Part shown: piece after piece, positions 14,561 through 42,090 of the stretch
Position numbering within the stretch: the first letter of the stretch is position 1
Layout of the letters: each line of letters starts with the position of its first letter
Source of the DNA: Paramesorhizobium salinisoli
GTDB taxonomy: Bacteria; Pseudomonadota; Alphaproteobacteria; Rhizobiales; Rhizobiaceae
Direction of reading: 5' to 3'
Assembly (NCBI RefSeq): GCF_003335045.1
Contig: NZ_QOZG01000011.1
Location: 1-64,000 of the forward strand
Length of the DNA stretch: 64,000 nucleotides
Notes under the pieces: model-generated
Told to the model about the DNA's origin: nothing
What the model saw: the letters and a program-made list of their open reading frames with translations, nothing else
The model's database searches: none
Program-made: the position numbers and the translations under genes

Positions 14561-15169
14561 ATGAACGAGGAAGCCCTCGGCGATCTCAAGCTCTATCTGG
14601 AGGAGCGTCTCGGCAGCGGTATCGACGATATCGCGCTGAGCTTTGGTGAACTGGTGCTGACGGTGCCGGTCGACAAGCTGATCACCACTCTGACATTCCT
14701 GCGCGACGACGTTCAGTGCCAGTTCGTGGCGTTCATCGATATTTGCGGCGTCGATTATCCCTCGCGCGCCCGGCGGTTCGATGTCGTCTATCATCTCCTG
14801 TCGCCGCGCCAGAATTTGCGTGTCCGCATCAAGGTCGAGACCGACGAGGACACGCCTGTTCCTTCAGCGACATCGGTCTATCCGGGCGCTGACTGGTTTG
14901 AGCGCGAAGCCTACGACATGTACGGCATCCTGTTTTCCGGCCACCCCGATCTGCGCCGCATCCTCACGGATTACGGCTTCGAGGGGCATCCGCTGCGCAA
15001 GGACTTCCCGCTCACTGGCTTCGTGGAAGTGCGCTATGACGACGAGTTGAAGCGCGTCGTCTACCAACCGGTCGAACTGCGGCAGGAATTCCGCAACTTC
15101 GATTTTCTCTCTCCGTGGGAGGGAACGGATTACGTTCTGCCCGGCGATGAAAAAGCCAAGGCGAACTGA
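14561..15169 (+). CDS. nuoC: NADH-quinone oxidoreductase subunit C
   Basis: A 202-residue peripheral-arm subunit (30 kDa family). The signature [37 protein letters not shown] is split across the middle of the protein and intact. The ATG at 14561 is preceded by AGGAGAGG. It stands apart from nuoD, as in most alphaproteobacteria, and is not fused to it as in E. coli. Confidence 0.97.
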
Positions 15170-34365: not shown

Positions 34366-35660
34366 GCAAGACGGCGGCTGTGGCCAATCAGGGCGGACGG
34401 GAGGGCTCCAAGCCCTTCTGCGCCTTGGAGCGGATGATCGCGTGGCGATACCTGCGCGCACGCCGCCGTGAAGCCTTTATTTCCGTCATCGCCGGCTTCT
34501 CCTTCACCGGCATCATGCTCGGCGTCGCAACGCTGATCATCGTCATGGCGGTGATGAACGGTTTCCGCACGGAATTGCTCACCCGCATCCTCGGCATCAA
34601 CGGCCATCTTATCATGCAGCCAATGGATCGGCCGTTCGACGATTATGCCGATCTCATCAAGCGCATTGATGCCATCCCGGGCGTTTCCTTCGCCATTCCG
34701 CTTGTCCAGGGGCAGGCGCTGGTCCAGGGCAATATCGGTGCCGGAAGCGGCGCTGCGGTACGTGGCCTGCGTGGCGAGGATATCGCCAAGCTGAAGCTTG
34801 TCTCCGACAATGTGAAGCAGGGCACGTTCGCCGGCTTTGACGATAGCGGCGGTGTCGCCATCGGCACCCGCATGGCGGAAGCGCTCGGTGTTTCCATCGG
34901 TGACAGCGTGACCGTCATATCGCCGGAGGGAGACGTAACGCCCTTCGGCGTCAATCCCCGGGTCAAATCCTATAAAGTCGTGGCGATCTTCGAAATAGGC
35001 ATGTCGGAATATGATGCCACGATCGTTCTCATGCCGCTCTCGCAGGCGCAGCTCTTCTTCAATCAGGAGGGTAAGGTGCAGATGATCGAGGTTTTTGCCG
35101 ATAATCCCGATAATGTCGATGCGCTGCGCAAGCCGATCGAAGACGTTGCCGGTCGTCAGCTTCTGCTGACCGATTGGCGCCAGCAGAACAAGACCTTCTT
35201 CTCCGCTCTCGAGGTGGAGCGCAACGTGATGTTCATGATCCTGACGCTGATCGTGCTGGTTGCCGCCCTCAACATCATTTCCGGCTTGATCATGCTGGTC
35301 AAGGATAAGGGCAGGGACATCGCCATCTTGCGCACCATGGGCGCGACACGCAACGCCATCCTGCGCATCTTCCTGATGACAGGCGCCGCGATCGGCACTG
35401 CCGGGACGTTGGCAGGTGTCGTCCTCGGGGTCGTGGTGTGCCTCAATGTCGAGCGCATTCGTGAGTTCTTTTCCTGGCTTTCGGGCACCACGCTTTTCAA
35501 TCCGGAACTCTATTTCCTGAGCCAATTGCCGGCCCAGATGAATCCGGGCGAGACGATCTCGGTCATCGTGATGGCGCTGGCGCTGTCCTTCCTTGCGACG
35601 CTCTTTCCGGCATGGCGGGCGGCCCGGCTCGATCCGGTCGAAGCCCTGAGGTATGAATGA
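34362..35660 (+). CDS. lolC: Lipoprotein-releasing ABC transporter permease (LolC/E)
   Basis: A 432-residue inner-membrane permease with one N-terminal membrane helix (about 42-64), a large periplasmic domain and three C-terminal helices (about 285-405). [24 protein letters not shown] and the C-terminal [18 protein letters not shown] are family signatures. With LolD it extracts lipoproteins from the inner membrane toward LolA. A single permease probably works as a homodimer, as in LolF-type systems. It is coupled to proS and lolD by overlapping codons. Confidence 0.9.
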
Positions 35661-36355
35661 TGGCAAAGAAGCCGGCGCTTGATCCCATTTTGAAACTGAC
35701 CAATGTCGGTCGCGCCTATCACGAAGCCGGACGCGCGCTGGTGATCCTGAAGGACGCCGATTTTTCCCTCGGGCGAGGCGAGATGGTCGCGCTCGTGGCG
35801 CCGTCAGGCGCCGGCAAGTCGACGCTCCTGCACACCGCAGGACTGCTGGAGCGTCCTGACAGCGGCGATGTCCTTCTCGACGGCCGCGACTGCAGCGCGC
35901 TTTCCGACGACGAGCGCACCGCCATCCGCCGCAACGATGTCGGCTTCGTCTATCAATTCCACCACCTTCTTCCGGAATTCACAGCACTCGAGAATGTGAT
36001 GATCCCCCAGATGCTGCGCGGGCTCACATCGGCCGCTGCTGCCGAGCGGGCGCAGCAACTTCTCGACTACATGAAGGTCGGCCCCCGCGCCACGCACCGC
36101 CCGTCGGAACTTTCCGGCGGCGAGCAGCAGCGCGTCGCGATCGCTCGCGCCGTCGCCAACGCGCCCCTGGTGCTCCTCGCGGATGAGCCGACCGGCAATC
36201 TCGATCCGCAGACGGCCTCCTACGTATTTGAGGCGCTGGAAGCGCTGGTGCGCCAGTCAGGCCTCTCCGCGCTGATCGCCACCCACAACCACGACCTGGC
36301 CGCCCGCATGGACCGCCGCGTGACATTGAAGGACGGCAAGGTAGTGGACGTCTGA
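35657..36355 (+). CDS. lolD: Lipoprotein-releasing ABC transporter ATPase
   Basis: A 232-residue ATPase partner of the adjacent permease. Walker A is [12 protein letters not shown], the signature is [14 protein letters not shown], Walker B is [13 protein letters not shown], and the H-loop is ATHNHDLA. Two ATGs at 35657 and 35660 overlap the permease stop. It is the last gene of the proS-lolC-lolD unit. Confidence 0.95.
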
Positions 36356-36596: not shown

Positions 36597-36607
36597 AAAA
36601 ACCCGTC

Positions 36608-36630
36608 ATCATCGGACTTGATCCGATGAT
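36608..36630. repeat. Palindrome next to the GIY-YIG remnant
   Basis: Perfect nine-base stem ATCATCGGA (36608-36616) and TCCGATGAT (36622-36630) around CTTGA. It resembles the GTCATCxTCGG...CCGAxGATCCA palindrome that is frequent in alphaproteobacterial genomes near GIY-YIG genes (recalled, not searched). Confidence 0.6.
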
Positions 36631-36728
36631 CCATTCCGGAACGTCAAACCAACCACAATCGTCCCGATCCCCATTAACCCTCTGCAAACCATAAGCAAAA
36701 AACAACGGGGAAAACTTGGTTGACATTA

Positions 36729-36743
36729 GAACAAAAATGGAAC
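36729..36743 (+). promoter_or_regulatory. LexA (SOS) box upstream of a membrane micropeptide gene
   Basis: GAAC-AAAAATG-GAAC is an exact match to the alphaproteobacterial LexA site GAAC-N7-GAAC. It lies three bases downstream of a perfect TTGACA (36720-36725), that is, within the promoter spacer, 38 bases before the micropeptide start. A clear -10 could not be assigned. Confidence 0.75.
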
Positions 36744-36781
36744 AAAAACTAAACATATGAGAACAAAGAGGAGTTTTTGTC

Positions 36782-36868
36782 ATGACCGATCTTGTCCACG
36801 ATGTCTTGTCCTTCGTTTCCGTCAGCCTGTTCATCGCGACCTTCGCCATCTGGGTGAGCGCGATCTGA
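36782..36868 (+). CDS. SOS-controlled 28-residue single-pass membrane peptide (SidA-like candidate)
   Basis: A 28-codon gene starts MTDLVHDVLSFVSVSLFIA and ends TFAIWVSAI-stop. AGAGGAG lies ten bases before the ATG. Residues about 8-27 form one uninterrupted hydrophobic helix behind a short acidic N-terminus. The promoter contains a LexA box and the next gene downstream is dnaE. Caulobacter SidA, an inner-membrane peptide of 29 residues made under SOS control that blocks division through FtsW/FtsN, has the same size, topology and regulation. Sequence homology cannot be judged from here, so the function is inferred. Confidence 0.65.
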   Translation: MTDLVHDVLSFVSVSLFIATFAIWVSAI

Positions 36869-36999: not shown

Positions 37000-39900
37000 G
37001 TGGCGGACGGTACACAAGCGAGCAGGGGTGATCTGAAGACGGCATCGGCAAAAGCCGATCCGCGTTTCATCCATCTCAGGGTCCATTCCGCCTATTCCCT
37101 GCTGGAAGGCGCGTTGCAGATCGGCAAGATCATCGGCCATGCGGTCGGCGACAATGCGCCGGCCATCGCGATCACCGACACCAACAATCTGTTCGGGGCG
37201 CTGGAATTCGCCCAGAAGGCGGTCAAGGACGGCGTACAGCCGATCGTCGGCTGCCAGCTCGATTTAAGCTTCGGCGATAGTGGCGATGACAGCCGCAGCG
37301 CCAGCAGGCGCGATGCGCTGGGCCTTGCGCCCATTGTACTGATCGCCGCTACCGAGGAAGGCTATACCAATCTGGTGCGGCTGGTGAGCCGTGCCTATCT
37401 CGAAACGCCGGCAGGCGATCCCGTGCATATCGATGCCGGCTGGCTCGACGGACATTCGGAAGGCATCATCGCTCTGACCGGCGGCGCGCTCGGGCCTATT
37501 GGCCGGGCACTTGCCGCCGAGCGGCCGGATCGTGCGCAGCAGCGCCTCCAGCATCTCCAGTTCCTGTTTGGCGACCGTCTCTATGTCGAATTGCAGCGCC
37601 CCGCCGGCTATGACCGCCTGATCGAGGCGCGCATGATCGAACTCGCTTATGCGAGGGCGCTACCGCTGGTTGCGACCAACGAGGCCTTCTTCCTCAAAAG
37701 CGCCGATTACGAGGCCCATGACGCGCTGCTCGCCATCGCCGACGGACAATTGCTTTCCTCCGACGAGCGCCGCCGCCTGACGCCGGACCATTATCTGAAG
37801 AGCCAGGCCGAGATGGCGGCGCTCTTCGCCGATCTGCCAGAGGCGCTGGAGAATACGGTCGAAATCGCGCGGCGTTGTTGCTGGTATCCGGAAACCCGCA
37901 AGCCCATCCTGCCGCGCTTTACCGGCGATGCGGGAAACCCGGAGGCTGCGCTGCAGGCTGAAGCCGACGAACTGGCGCGGCAGGCGCGCGAGGGGCTCGA
38001 CCAGCGTATCGCGACGCTCGGCATGGCGGACGGGTATACGCGCGAGCAATATATCGAGCGCCTGGAATACGAGATATCGATCATCCAGCGGATGGGGTTT
38101 CCCGGCTACTTCCTGATCGTTTCCGACTTCATCAAATGGGCGAAGGCACAGGGCATTCCCGTGGGGCCGGGCCGCGGCTCGGGCGCGGGCTCGCTTGTGG
38201 CCTACGCGCTCACCATCACAGACGTAGACCCCTTGCGTTTTTCGCTGCTGTTCGAGCGCTTCCTCAATCCTGACCGCGTATCGATGCCCGATTTCGACAT
38301 CGATTTCTGCCAGGACCGGCGCGACGAGGTCATCCGCTATGTCCAGGCTAAGTACGGCCGTGACCAAGTGGCGCAAATCATTACCTTCGGTACGCTCCAG
38401 GCGCGCGCCGTGCTGCGCGACGTCGGCCGTGTGCTCGAAATGCCCTATGGTCAGGTGGACCGGCTCTGCAAGCTCGTGCCGCAGAACCCGGCCAATCCGG
38501 TCACGCTGGGACAGGCGATCGAGAGCGAGCCGAAGATTGCCGAGGAGCGCGAGAAGGAACCCGTCGTGGGCCGCCTCCTCGATATCGGGCTGAAGCTCGA
38601 AGGTCTCTACCGTCATGCCTCGACCCACGCAGCGGGTATCGTCATCGGCGACCGGCCTTTGTCGGAACTGGTGCCGATGTACCGCGATCCGCGTTCGGAC
38701 ATGCCGGTCACCCAGTACAACATGAAATGGGTGGAGCAGGCGGGGCTGGTCAAGTTCGACTTTCTCGGCTTGAAGACACTGACCGTATTGCAGACGGCGG
38801 TGAAGCTTGTCGCCCGCAAGAACATCGCGATCGATCTCTCCAACCTGCCGCTTGATGATGAGCCCACCTACGAAATGCTGTCGCGCGGCGAGACGGTCGG
38901 CGTGTTCCAGGTGGAAAGTTCCGGCATGCGCAAGGCGCTGATCGGCATGAAGCCGGACTGTATCGAGGATGTCATCGCGCTGGTGGCGCTCTATCGCCCG
39001 GGGCCGATGGAGAACATTCCGATCTATAATGCGCGCAAGCATGGCGAGGAGGAAATCGCCTCGATCCATCCCAAGATCGATTATCTGGTGAAGGAGACGC
39101 AGGGCGTCATCGTCTATCAGGAACAGGTGATGCAGATCGCGCAGGAGCTTTCCGGCTACTCGCTCGGCGAAGCAGATCTGTTGCGCCGCGCCATGGGCAA
39201 GAAGATTCGCGAGGAGATGGACAAGCAGCGTCTCCGCTTCGTCGATGGCGCCATCGAGCGCGGCGTCGGCAAGGCGCAGGCGAATACCATCTTCGACCTG
39301 CTGGCAAAATTCGCCGATTACGGCTTCAACAAGTCGCACGCCGCTGCCTACGCGATTGTGTCCTACCAGACTGCCTATCTCAAGGCGCATCATCCCGTCG
39401 AATTTCTCGCCGCGTCTATGACCTACGACATGTCCAACACGGACAAGCTCAACGACTTCCGTCGTGAAGCGAACCGGCTGGGCATCGAGGTCGTGCAGCC
39501 CTCGGTCATGACCTCGTTCCGTGCGTTCGAAGTGGGTGAGAACCGGATTTTCTATTCGCTTGCCGCGATCAAGGGCGTGGGCGAGGCCGCCGTCGACCAT
39601 ATCGTCGCGAAACGGCAGGAAAAGCCATATGAGAGTCTTGAGGATTTCTGCGAGCGCATCGACCCGCGCATCGTCAACCGCCGCGTTTTCGAAAGCCTGA
39701 TCAATGCCGGCGCGCTCGATTGCTTCAAGCGCGACAGGGCGTCGATGATCGCCGGCCTCGACCGGATCATGGGCCACGCACAGCGCACGCAGGAAGACGC
39801 CGTCAGCGGCCAGGCGGATATTTTCGGCCTGGGTGGCGGACCAAAGGAAAAGCTTCAGCTTCCCGCCGCACCGCCCTGGCTCCCCTCCGAAAAACTGCAT

Positions 39901-40503
39901 CGCGAATTCCAGGCGGTCGGCTTCTATCTCTCGGCCCATCCGCTGGATGAATATCGCTCGGTCCTGCAGAAGATGCGCGTGCAGAGCTGGGCGGATTTCT
40001 CCATCGCCGTGAAGCGCGGCGCAAGCGCCGGGCGACTCGCCGGCACGGTGACGAGCCGCCAGGAGCGCAAGACGCGCACCGGCAACAAGATGGGCATCGT
40101 CCAGCTTTCGGATGCGACAGGACAATTCGAAGCCATTCTGTTTTCCGAAGGGCTCGCGCAATATCGCGACCTGCTCGAATCGGGCAGATCGGTGGTGATC
40201 ACGGTTGCGGCGGAAGACCGGCCCGAGGGCATCAGCCTGCGTATCCAGACGGTCCAGTCGTTGGAGGACGAGGCAAGTCGCATCCAGAAGGCGCTGCGGC
40301 TATATCTGCGCTCGAGCGAGGCCTTGAAGCAGATCGTGCCGCATCTGGCGACGCGCGGAGATGGCCAGGTGAGCCTCATCGTCATCAAGGAGAACGGCCT
40401 TCGCGAGGTGGAGATCGAACTTCCCGACCGCTACCGCGTCAGCCCCCAGATCGCCAGCGCCATGAAGGCGATCAAGGGCGTTGTGGATGTCGAGTTGCTT
40501 TAG
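37000..40503 (+). CDS. dnaE: DNA polymerase III alpha subunit
   Basis: The 1167-residue replicative polymerase. The N-terminal PHP domain starts [19 protein letters not shown]. The polymerase core has [25 protein letters not shown] and [19 protein letters not shown] with the catalytic aspartates. [18 protein letters not shown] and [20 protein letters not shown] are typical finger-domain motifs. Helix-hairpin-helix and OB-fold regions follow ([20 protein letters not shown]). It starts with GTG, with AGGGAA upstream. It is the DnaE1 type; the mutagenic DnaE2 is not in this window. Confidence 0.97.
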   Translation: [1167 protein letters not shown]

Positions 40504-40608: not shown

Positions 40609-41922
40609 TCAACCCTTCCCCTCGCTCGGCGGTCGCTCAGTCCGCGCCTTGCCGAAAGTGTAGCCGGTTTCGACGGCCTTGTTGCCGAATTTAGTTCGAA
40701 GCTTGTCGATCGCGCCTTCCGCAACTGCGCGCTTCGTTGCCTGATTGTCGACCAGATCCGGCGGGTCTGCCTTGCCCGCATCCTCCAGATCGCTGACGCC
40801 GATGCCGATGAGGCGGAACTTTGTTCCATCAAGCTCCTTTTCCAGGAGCTGCAACCCTGTGCGGAATATGCGGTCGGCGAGTTGCGTCGGATCGGAAAGC
40901 TGCCTGTTGCGGGTCCGGCTCTTAAAATCCTGGGTCTTGAGCTTCAGGACAACGGTGCGCCCGGCAATGCCGCCGGCCTTCAGTCGCCGCGATACTTTTT
41001 CTGAAAGGCTGCGCAGGATTGGCACGAGATCGCCGGCCGAGGAGAGATCCGTGTTGAACGTGGTCTCGGACGATACGCTTTTCATCTCGCCCTCAGGTTC
41101 GACCCGCCGCACATCCATACCCCGCGAAAGCCTATAGAGCCTCTGGCCCATCGTTCCATAGGCCCTCATCAGCGCCGTTTCCTCCATTTCCTGCAACTGG
41201 CCGATGGTGCTGATGCCATCGGCTTGCAGCGTCGCCGCGAAGGCCTTGCCGACACCCCAGATCAGCGTCACCGATTTTTCCCTCAGGAACGACAACGCCT
41301 CCTTCTCGCCGATGATGGAGAAGCCGCGCGGCTTTTCGAAATCGGAGGCGACCTTTGCCAGGAACTTGCAATAGGAGAGGCCGACGGAGATGGTAATGCC
41401 GACTTCGTCCTCGATGCGCTTGGCGAAGCGGGCCAGCACACGGGCAGGGGGATCGCGGTGCAGCCGCTCCGTGCCTTTCAGGTCGAGAAAAGCCTCGTCA
41501 ATCGAAATCGGCTCGACCAGCGGCGTCAGTTCCAGCATCAATTGCCGGATTTCACGGCCGACCCGGACATATTTCTCCATGTCAGGCTTGACGACCACCG
41601 CCTGCGGACAGGCCTCCAGCGCCTTGAACATCGGCATGGCCGAGCGCACGCCGTGGATGCGCGCGATATAGCATGCCGTCGAGACCACGCCGCGCTTGCC
41701 GCCGCCGATGATCAGCGGCTTGTCGCGAAGATCGGGATTGTCGCGCTTCTCCACCGCCGCATAGAAGGCGTCGCAGTCGATATGCGCCAGCGACAGGCTG
41801 TAGAGCTCGTCATGACGCATGAGCCGTGGGCTGCCGCAGGCATGGCAACGCCGCGCCGCGGAACGTTGCAGCGTCAGGCAGTCGCGGCAGAAACCGCTAA
41901 GCGGATCATTGACAGAGCCCAT
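40609..41922 (-). CDS. dinB: DNA polymerase IV (Y-family) with N-terminal CxxC-CxxC module
   Basis: A 437-residue translesion polymerase. Catalytic motifs are [18 protein letters not shown] and [33 protein letters not shown] and the helix-hairpin-helix region follow, with a little-finger domain at the C-terminus. Residues 12-29 form CRDC-N10-CHAC, a putative zinc ribbon not present in E. coli DinB. The ATG at 41922 is chosen because the LexA box at 41932-41946 lies just upstream; an upstream ATG at 41937 overlaps the box. It is convergent with dnaE. Confidence 0.93.
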
Positions 41923-41931
41923 ACACACGGC

Positions 41932-41946
41932 GAACATAAGAGGAAC
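41932..41946 (-). promoter_or_regulatory. LexA (SOS) box of dinB
   Basis: GAAC-ATAAGAG-GAAC on the plus strand (GTTC-N7-GTTC for the gene) matches the alphaproteobacterial LexA operator exactly, ten bases before the proposed start. The mRNA leader must therefore be very short. Confidence 0.75.
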
Positions 41947-42090
41947 ATTTTGAATGATAGGCGACTGATGCCGTCGCGGCAAGAACAGATGCGCGATCAT
42001 ACACCGTTAGAAGCGACCGCAGCACCGCTGGATATGCAACGCTAGCGATCAAATTCCGCGATTTGCCGACAGGTCCCTGTCTGGTGAAAA

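What the first reader, a model, noticed from the sequence alone, without database searches (positions are those of the whole stretch)
36720..36868. LexA-box-controlled 28-residue membrane peptide upstream of dnaE: a candidate SOS division inhibitor
Seen: TTGACA, then GAAC-N7-GAAC (36729-36743), AGAGGAG, and a 28-codon frame at 36782 encoding one hydrophobic helix. Known: GAAC-N7-GAAC is the alphaproteobacterial LexA operator, and Caulobacter SidA is a 29-residue single-pass inner-membrane peptide, SOS-induced, that stops division via FtsW/FtsN. Inferred: this is a Hyphomicrobiales SOS checkpoint peptide. It is too short for most annotation pipelines.
Basis: partly seen in the sequence, partly recalled or inferred. 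Interest (0 to 1): 0.87.

Follow-up and report, generated by a model that had tools for sequence, protein, structure and literature searches.

The report
SOS-controlled SidA-type peptide before dnaE
A 28-residue membrane peptide under the DNA-damage repressor LexA, too short to match any protein-family library searched, is a conserved gene of Mesorhizobium, Brucella and their relatives and looks like their version of Caulobacter's SidA, which stops cell division while DNA is repaired.

Summary
At 36720-36868 lie TTGACA, a LexA operator (GAAC-N7-GAAC), a Shine-Dalgarno site and a 28-codon frame under purifying selection (pN/pS 0.10). Of 70 homologues found by protein similarity alone (window included), 68 have an exact LexA box within 90 nt upstream; 8 extra copies, some phage-borne, have none. 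The gene lies between lolD and dnaE, and a like arrangement occurs in Caulobacterales: in all 25 Caulobacteraceae-like genomes sampled a similar peptide precedes dnaE, 21 with an exact box. Papers give dnaE as CC1926 and sidA as CCNA_02004. Profiles of the two groups align gap-free from residue 1 (probability 82%, 0 of 150 shuffles). Best reading: orthologue of SidA, a LexA-controlled inhibitor of the FtsW/FtsI/FtsN step. Induction, translation here and division arrest are inferred. In print, SOS control near this place was credited to dnaE, and a translated sORF before Sinorhizobium dnaE1 was read as a possible uORF.

The parts
36720..36725 (+). -35-like TTGACA of the peptide's presumed promoter
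   Evidence: TTGAC kept in 6 of 6 relatives; no consensus -10 found
36729..36743 (+). LexA operator GAACAAAAATGGAAC (GAAC-N7-GAAC), just downstream of the -35-like element
   Evidence: half-sites 100% kept in 6 relatives; exact box upstream in 68 of 70 homologous loci; same motif near recA, ssb/uvrA, imuA-like, ChlI/ComM-like and dinB genes in this genome
36761..36764 (+). third GAAC, 21 bases after the second half-site (about two helix turns)
   Evidence: kept in 6 of 6 relatives; role unknown
36767..36773 (+). Shine-Dalgarno AGAGGAG, 8 bases before the ATG
   Evidence: 90.5% kept over 36768-36774
36782..36868 (+). 28-codon gene of the SidA-type SOS membrane peptide (MTDLVHDVLSFVSVSLFIATFAIWVSAI)
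   Evidence: window peptide: no Pfam (E<=1), NCBIfam (E<=10) or PHROGs (E<=1) match
35657..36355 (+). lolD-like ABC ATPase gene, the conserved upstream neighbour
   Evidence: best NCBIfam match LolD, 257 bits, under its curated cut-off of 308; the gene before it matches LolCE over the cut-off; used as query
37000..40503 (+). dnaE (DNA polymerase III alpha subunit), frequent downstream neighbour, 131 bases after the peptide's stop
   Evidence: no terminator-like site found between

Best explanation
The 28-codon frame is the Hyphomicrobiales orthologue of Caulobacter sidA. In undamaged cells LexA bound to GAAC-N7-GAAC, just downstream of the -35-like element, blocks transcription (operator shown by sequence and conservation; binding inferred). 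DNA damage activates RecA, LexA cleaves itself, and a short leader with a strong Shine-Dalgarno site gives quick synthesis of the peptide (inferred). The peptide inserts as one helix into the inner membrane (predicted from hydrophobicity) and docks, perhaps by the face bearing D/E7, S/A10 and F17, on the septal synthase, most likely FtsW as SidA does, and holds FtsW/FtsI/FtsN inactive until LexA returns (inferred from SidA). It sits between lolD and dnaE by old inherited gene order. With no terminator-like site before dnaE, the damage-induced transcript may also carry dnaE, a possible second output.
For: Purifying selection: pN/pS 0.10. Fixed length: 38 of 40 weaker homologues read 28 aa from an ATG. 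LexA box in 68 of 70 loci found without using it. The motif in this genome: 46 sites against 21 for the reversed control; among 12 sites read, neighbours include RecA, SSB, UvrA, ChlI-type and HhH-GPD proteins by Pfam. Synteny: lolD upstream in 55 of 64 loci with enough sequence, dnaE downstream in 28 of 56 (loci found by a motif that includes the box and three peptide positions). Caulobacterales: exact box and short hydrophobic ORF before dnaE in 37 of 50 loci examined; all 25 f115 (Caulobacteraceae-like) genomes of the sample hold the peptide, 21 with an exact box, 4 without. Profile-profile: 24 rhizobial peptides not chosen by motif against 20 f115 peptides, probability 82%, 19 columns gap-free from Met1, 0 of 150 column shuffles as good. 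Papers, passages seen: sidA = CCNA_02004, dnaE = CC1926, SidA a 29-aa inner-membrane SOS inhibitor acting on FtsW, AlphaFold 3 places SidA on FtsW TM7, not with high confidence. No SulA in 21 genomes searched, E. coli control positive.
Against: No expression, localisation or phenotype data for this organism. The published SidA sequence was in no text I could read, so identity of the g508 peptide with SidA rests on size, LexA box, place before dnaE and recalled numbering (sidA as CC1927, next to CC1926). The genomes called Caulobacteraceae are unnamed; only their order is anchored, by a 100% match to Maricaulis alexandrii DnaE. Of the 120 genomes of that search I examined 51; family f197 was not examined and f226 in one genome only. 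The rhizobial profile alone did not reach the Caulobacterales peptides (class sample: 23 of 385 genomes at E<=0.1, own included, 16 of the 22 others in frames of 100 aa or more). 15 of the 40 weaker homologues lack W24. The helical face is only suggestive: 149 of 2000 shuffles reach the periodicity. Five of 20 f225 and 4 of 5 f224 loci gave no boxed peptide. All 8 second copies fetched lack a box within 200 nt. The promoter scan found no consensus promoter.
Confidence: 0.75

Rival explanations
1. A TisB/DinQ-type SOS membrane toxin that depolarises the inner membrane and slows growth, rather than a divisome inhibitor.
For: Same size class and LexA control: DinQ is a 27-aa single-pass inner-membrane peptide under LexA that depolarises the membrane on overexpression (PMC3567139 passages).
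Against: dinQ and tisB loci carry antisense RNAs and processed leaders. Here the leader is short with an open Shine-Dalgarno, and no inverted repeat or Rfam match was found around it. Homology and gene order link it to SidA-type peptides.
Confidence: 0.1
2. A translated upstream ORF (leader peptide) whose purpose is to regulate dnaE in cis.
For: dnaE follows closely with no terminator-like site. In S. meliloti sORF25 in the dnaE1 5'-UTR is translated and was named among sORFs that might be uORFs. [quoted passage not shown]
Against: 28 of 56 loci with at least 1.5 kb downstream show no dnaE there, 18 of them with 4 kb or more, 20 of them Mesorhizobium. The amino-acid sequence is what is conserved. 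Phage-borne copies exist away from dnaE.
Confidence: 0.08
3. A SidA-family peptide by descent that in Hyphomicrobiales acts on another target, such as the elongation machinery or an envelope protein.
For: C-terminal parts differ: the alignment with the Caulobacteraceae-like set stops at residue 19 and W24 is variable. Recalled: many Hyphomicrobiales grow by polar elongation with a rearranged cell-wall machinery.
Against: The N-terminal half with D/E7, S/A10, F17 is shared; FtsW/FtsI/FtsN are expected in both groups (recalled, not searched).
Confidence: 0.15
4. A chance ORF next to a real LexA box that serves dnaE alone.
For: ORFs of this length are common by chance (95 of 25 aa or more overlap these 8 kb).
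Against: pN/pS 0.10 and 0 of 30 stops in frame; constant length.
Confidence: 0.01

Closest known systems
SidA of Caulobacter crescentus (CCNA_02004)
   Same: SOS-controlled, 29 against 28 residues, membrane peptide; Caulobacteraceae-like peptides found before dnaE share the place and a gap-free N-terminal profile match (D/E7, S/A10, F17)
   Different: C-terminal third diverged; the f115 peptides mostly have R6 before D/E7 and W19, not W24; FtsW action untested here
TisB and DinQ of Escherichia coli
   Same: SOS-induced inner-membrane peptides of 27 (DinQ) and 29 residues (TisB, recalled)
   Different: type I toxin-antitoxin loci with antisense RNAs; no sequence comparison was made with them
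YneA, SosA, ChiZ (Gram-positive damage-induced division inhibitors)
   Same: small membrane proteins that stop late division steps, predicted on FtsW TM7 (PMC13396833 passages)
   Different: larger (recalled); YneA and ChiZ carry LysM domains; SidA predicted on the opposite side of TM7
DidA of Caulobacter (71 aa)
   Same: damage-induced single-pass inhibitor of the same divisome step
   Different: SOS-independent, driven by DriD
sORF25 of Sinorhizobium meliloti (5'-UTR of dnaE1)
   Same: translated small ORF at what seems the same place
   Different: sequence and length not seen; named by its authors among possible uORFs

Membership tests
SidA family | Expression under LexA (SOS) | tested here: met
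   Exact operator upstream, kept in 68 of 70 homologous loci; by sequence only, induction not measured; 0 of 8 second copies have it
SidA family | About 29 residues with a single transmembrane helix | tested here: met
   28 aa, best 19-residue hydropathy 2.14; localisation not testable
SidA family | Sequence homology to the Caulobacter peptide | tested here: inconclusive
   Met against the peptides of unnamed Caulobacteraceae-like genomes (82% over 19 gap-free columns, 0 of 150 shuffles, best pair 10 of 28 identical); the published SidA letters were not available
SidA family | Location upstream of dnaE | tested here: met
   Window; 25 of 25 f115 genomes. Not universal: 28 of 56 rhizobial-type loci show no dnaE downstream. 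sidA CCNA_02004 and dnaE CC1926 from papers, their adjacency recalled
SidA family | Blocks division through FtsW/FtsN | not testable with these tools
   needs genetics
TisB/DinQ type I toxins | cis-encoded antisense RNA and structured, processed leader | tested here: inconclusive
   no Rfam match and no inverted repeat; the promoter scan found nothing on either strand, but it also missed the peptide's own promoter
TisB/DinQ type I toxins | Membrane depolarisation | not testable with these tools
   needs assay
SulA | PF03846 domain | tested here: not met
   0 of 21 genomes including the own; E. coli control positive; peptide has no Pfam match
dnaE leader peptide (uORF) | Obligatory linkage to dnaE | tested here: not met
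   no dnaE found in 28 of 56 loci with 1.5 kb or more downstream

The most novel reading that the evidence does not exclude
SidA is not a Caulobacter speciality but the old, class-wide SOS division checkpoint of Alphaproteobacteria, carried at the lolD-dnaE locus since early in the class. It is hidden because it is too short to annotate and because its LexA box was credited to dnaE. Phages of Brucella-like hosts have taken it up without the LexA box as their own host-division blocker.
Probability: 0.45. Interest if true: 0.82.

Novelty: new member of a known kind. Interest (0 to 1): 0.68.

Why it matters
My searches of a CC-licensed library (listings) showed no SOS division inhibitor described for rhizobia, Agrobacterium, Brucella, Bartonella or Mesorhizobium. 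This gives a candidate for that whole family with coordinates and operator, offers a reason why dnaE looked SOS-regulated, and suggests an identity for a translated sORF of S. meliloti. The many natural variants of a 28-residue inhibitor of the septal synthase would also help to show which residues do the work.

Tried and rejected
Rejected: chance ORF; dnaE-only leader; SulA. The HMM of 30 rhizobial peptides over the order matched 58 of 297 genomes at E<=0.1 (12 of the family, own included; of the other 46 about half in frames of 100 aa or more) and over the class 23 of 385. Of 9 outside-family loci looked at, 5 (L068, L073, L076, L080, L085) have an exact box just upstream. Wider kinship was therefore sought through gene order. 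A first alignment had three loci in the wrong orientation, redone. In one search I cut L049 at the wrong place; one search has it right. That motif contains the LexA box, D/E7, F17 and W24, so those loci are not evidence for the box or these residues. Promoter and terminator scans, Rfam and repeats found nothing. Phage and plasmid record collections gave no match, nor did a second motif in viral contigs. The order search around G904 hit another, small order (40 genomes). Structure prediction was not used: the tool takes 30 residues or more and no complexes.

Full report
What is there. The box alone is not significant in a 64 kb window (3 found, 1.32 expected) and the promoter scan found no consensus promoter, so the case rests on comparison.

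It is a gene. A DNA search of 61 genomes found the island in 7, own included; in G021, another genus, the match runs from 36719 to the stop. All 61 gave some match at E<=10, many of them through a dispersed repeat in the first 50 bases of the query. In 6 relatives the ORF is 89% identical, half-sites and TTGAC 100%, the stretch before the promoter 76%, the sequence after the stop 45%. A protein search of 297 genomes of the family gave a match at the loose limit E<=10 in 224, in 89 of 109 genera. I checked the 30 best loci, window included, and 40 weaker ones (E 1.5e-4 to 0.036) picked from the list; the other matches were not checked. All 30 have an exact GAAC-N7-GAAC within 90 nt upstream, and 38 of 40; L410 and L433 do not. 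38 of the 40 read 28 aa from an ATG; L409 reads 27 from the second codon and L433 34. pN/pS is 0.10 for the 10 closest and 0.30 for 29 distinct sequences, and only the true frame is stop-free in all 30. The window peptide matches no Pfam, NCBIfam or PHROGs family.

LexA in this genome. GAACA-N6-GAAC occurs 46 times against 21 for the reversed control, so many sites are chance. Of 12 sites read, neighbours include RecA, SSB, UvrA (start 244 nt from one site), a ChlI-type (ComM-like, recalled) protein, an HhH-GPD protein and a radical SAM protein by Pfam; an ImuA-like protein had no Pfam match but an IMS-family gene lies downstream of its site at C2:495129. The window's dinB (DNA polymerase IV) has a box at 41932-41946, inside the longest frame but before the part that aligns to the family.

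Where it sits. The P. deserti contig has the same length as G003:C12, a genome of the window's genus, so the window is close to Paramesorhizobium. Leaving out one chance hit, lolD is upstream in 55 of 64 loci with at least 1.2 kb there and dnaE downstream in 28 of 56 with at least 1.5 kb. The other 28 (20 of them Mesorhizobium) show no dnaE, so the peptide is not a mere dnaE leader.

Link to SidA. I scanned the DNA before dnaE in other Alphaproteobacteria for an exact box followed by a short hydrophobic ORF: 13 of 30 loci, 4 of 20 and, in Caulobacterales, 37 of 50. From the box frequency in the window I expect a few hundredths per locus by chance. The order is anchored by a 100% match to Maricaulis alexandrii DnaE. 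By family: f115 20 of 24, f225 15 of 20, f224 1 of 5, f226 1 of 1; f197 was not examined. The 4 f115 loci without an exact box still hold the peptide, and G647 of the same family has box and peptide (L308): 25 of 25 genomes of f115 (Caulobacteraceae by size, G+C and order; inferred). Lengths are 29-32 from the start codons I chose, up to 40 from the first start in frame. In g508, which I take for Caulobacter, examples are MAKIARETLALASVVSFVWMMCSLAYVAA (L333) and MARIARETLALASVVGFVWMMCSVAYLAA (inside the frame of L344), both 29 residues. Papers, passages seen, give SidA as 29 aa, SOS-induced, acting on FtsW (PMC4211646), sidA as CCNA_02004 (PMC10769358 and PMC11034885) and dnaE as CC1926 (PMC1839093). 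That these two tags are neighbours I recall; the gene order found makes it likely. The rhizobial set (24 distinct, not chosen by motif) and the f115 set (20) align without gaps over residues 1-19: probability 82%, score 22.4 against a shuffle mean of 8.6 and maximum of 15.4 in 150. One search compared four groups in six pairs (probabilities 82-96%); four pairs were shuffled, 0 of 100 each as good. Some of these groups share the search motif.

Prior print. PMC3323433 (sections 7 and 8 read) says dnaE was reported as SOS-regulated in Caulobacter and came up in its alphaproteobacterial comparison; that the site meant is this one is my inference. PMC10117765 (section 24 read) reports sORF25, translated, in the S. 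meliloti dnaE1 5'-UTR. Searches for SidA homologues outside Caulobacter (listings, and passages of some papers) showed none described. The library holds only CC-licensed papers, and the founding 2011 SidA paper is not held.

Mechanism. Shown: operator sequence, promoter context, coding selection, hydrophobic helix, synteny, profile homology. Inferred: LexA binding, induction, membrane insertion, docking on FtsW/FtsI/FtsN, division arrest. Conserved positions 7, 10, 17 (and 13-14, 16, 20) suggest one helix face, but the periodicity is reached by 149 of 2000 shuffles.

Phage copies. Eight second copies in G021, G147, G216, G106, G004 and G001 have no LexA box within 200 nt. In G021 two neighbouring ORFs match PHROGs families, and its contig has the length of an IMG/VR entry that bears the same peptide. 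A DNA motif found 6 viral contigs; 4, that one included, hold a 32-aa MRDL..DIASFVAVSTFIATFAVWA..LAEKV frame without a box; L446 and L447 gave no ATG start. This suggests phage use of the same device, untested.

Noticed in passing
window 41932-41946: Exact LexA box (GAACATAAGAGGAAC) within the first codons of the longest minus-strand dinB frame (40609-42000) but before the part that aligns to DNA polymerase IV; dinB is probably SOS-controlled.
   Followed up: partly
window 14711-14725 (minus): Another exact GAAC-N7-GAAC; neighbour not examined, may be chance.
   Followed up: no
window 36600-36650: Dispersed short repeat with many hits in this and related genomes (query positions 1-50), REP-like, just upstream of the peptide's promoter.
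   Followed up: no
L434-L436, L440; L442-L445: SidA-like 29-33-residue peptides without LexA box, in IMG/VR contigs and beside PHROGs-type genes (L434); hosts look Brucella-like (inferred): candidate phage division inhibitors.
   Followed up: partly
L437-L439, L441: More diverged second copies (34-44 aa) in G004 and G001 without LexA box; nature unknown.
   Followed up: no
L298, L300, L305; L236-L239, L243-L246, L248, L252, L259, L261: LexA-boxed short hydrophobic ORFs before dnaE in other alphaproteobacterial families (for example MDWVKDAAGLAALVGLWGAFAAWAEIIGSVVGS in L300), perhaps far members of the family.
   Followed up: partly
L308, L337, L343, L347, L356, L357, L359, L360 (genus g290): Two LexA boxes 18 bases apart before the peptide in 8 of 12 loci of this Brevundimonas-like (inferred) genus.
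   Followed up: no
L395, L403, L405, L406, L409, L412, L417, L426: Three GAAC at 11-base steps (two overlapping LexA boxes) before the peptide in 8 of the 40 weaker loci; the window has its third GAAC at a 21-base step instead.
   Followed up: no
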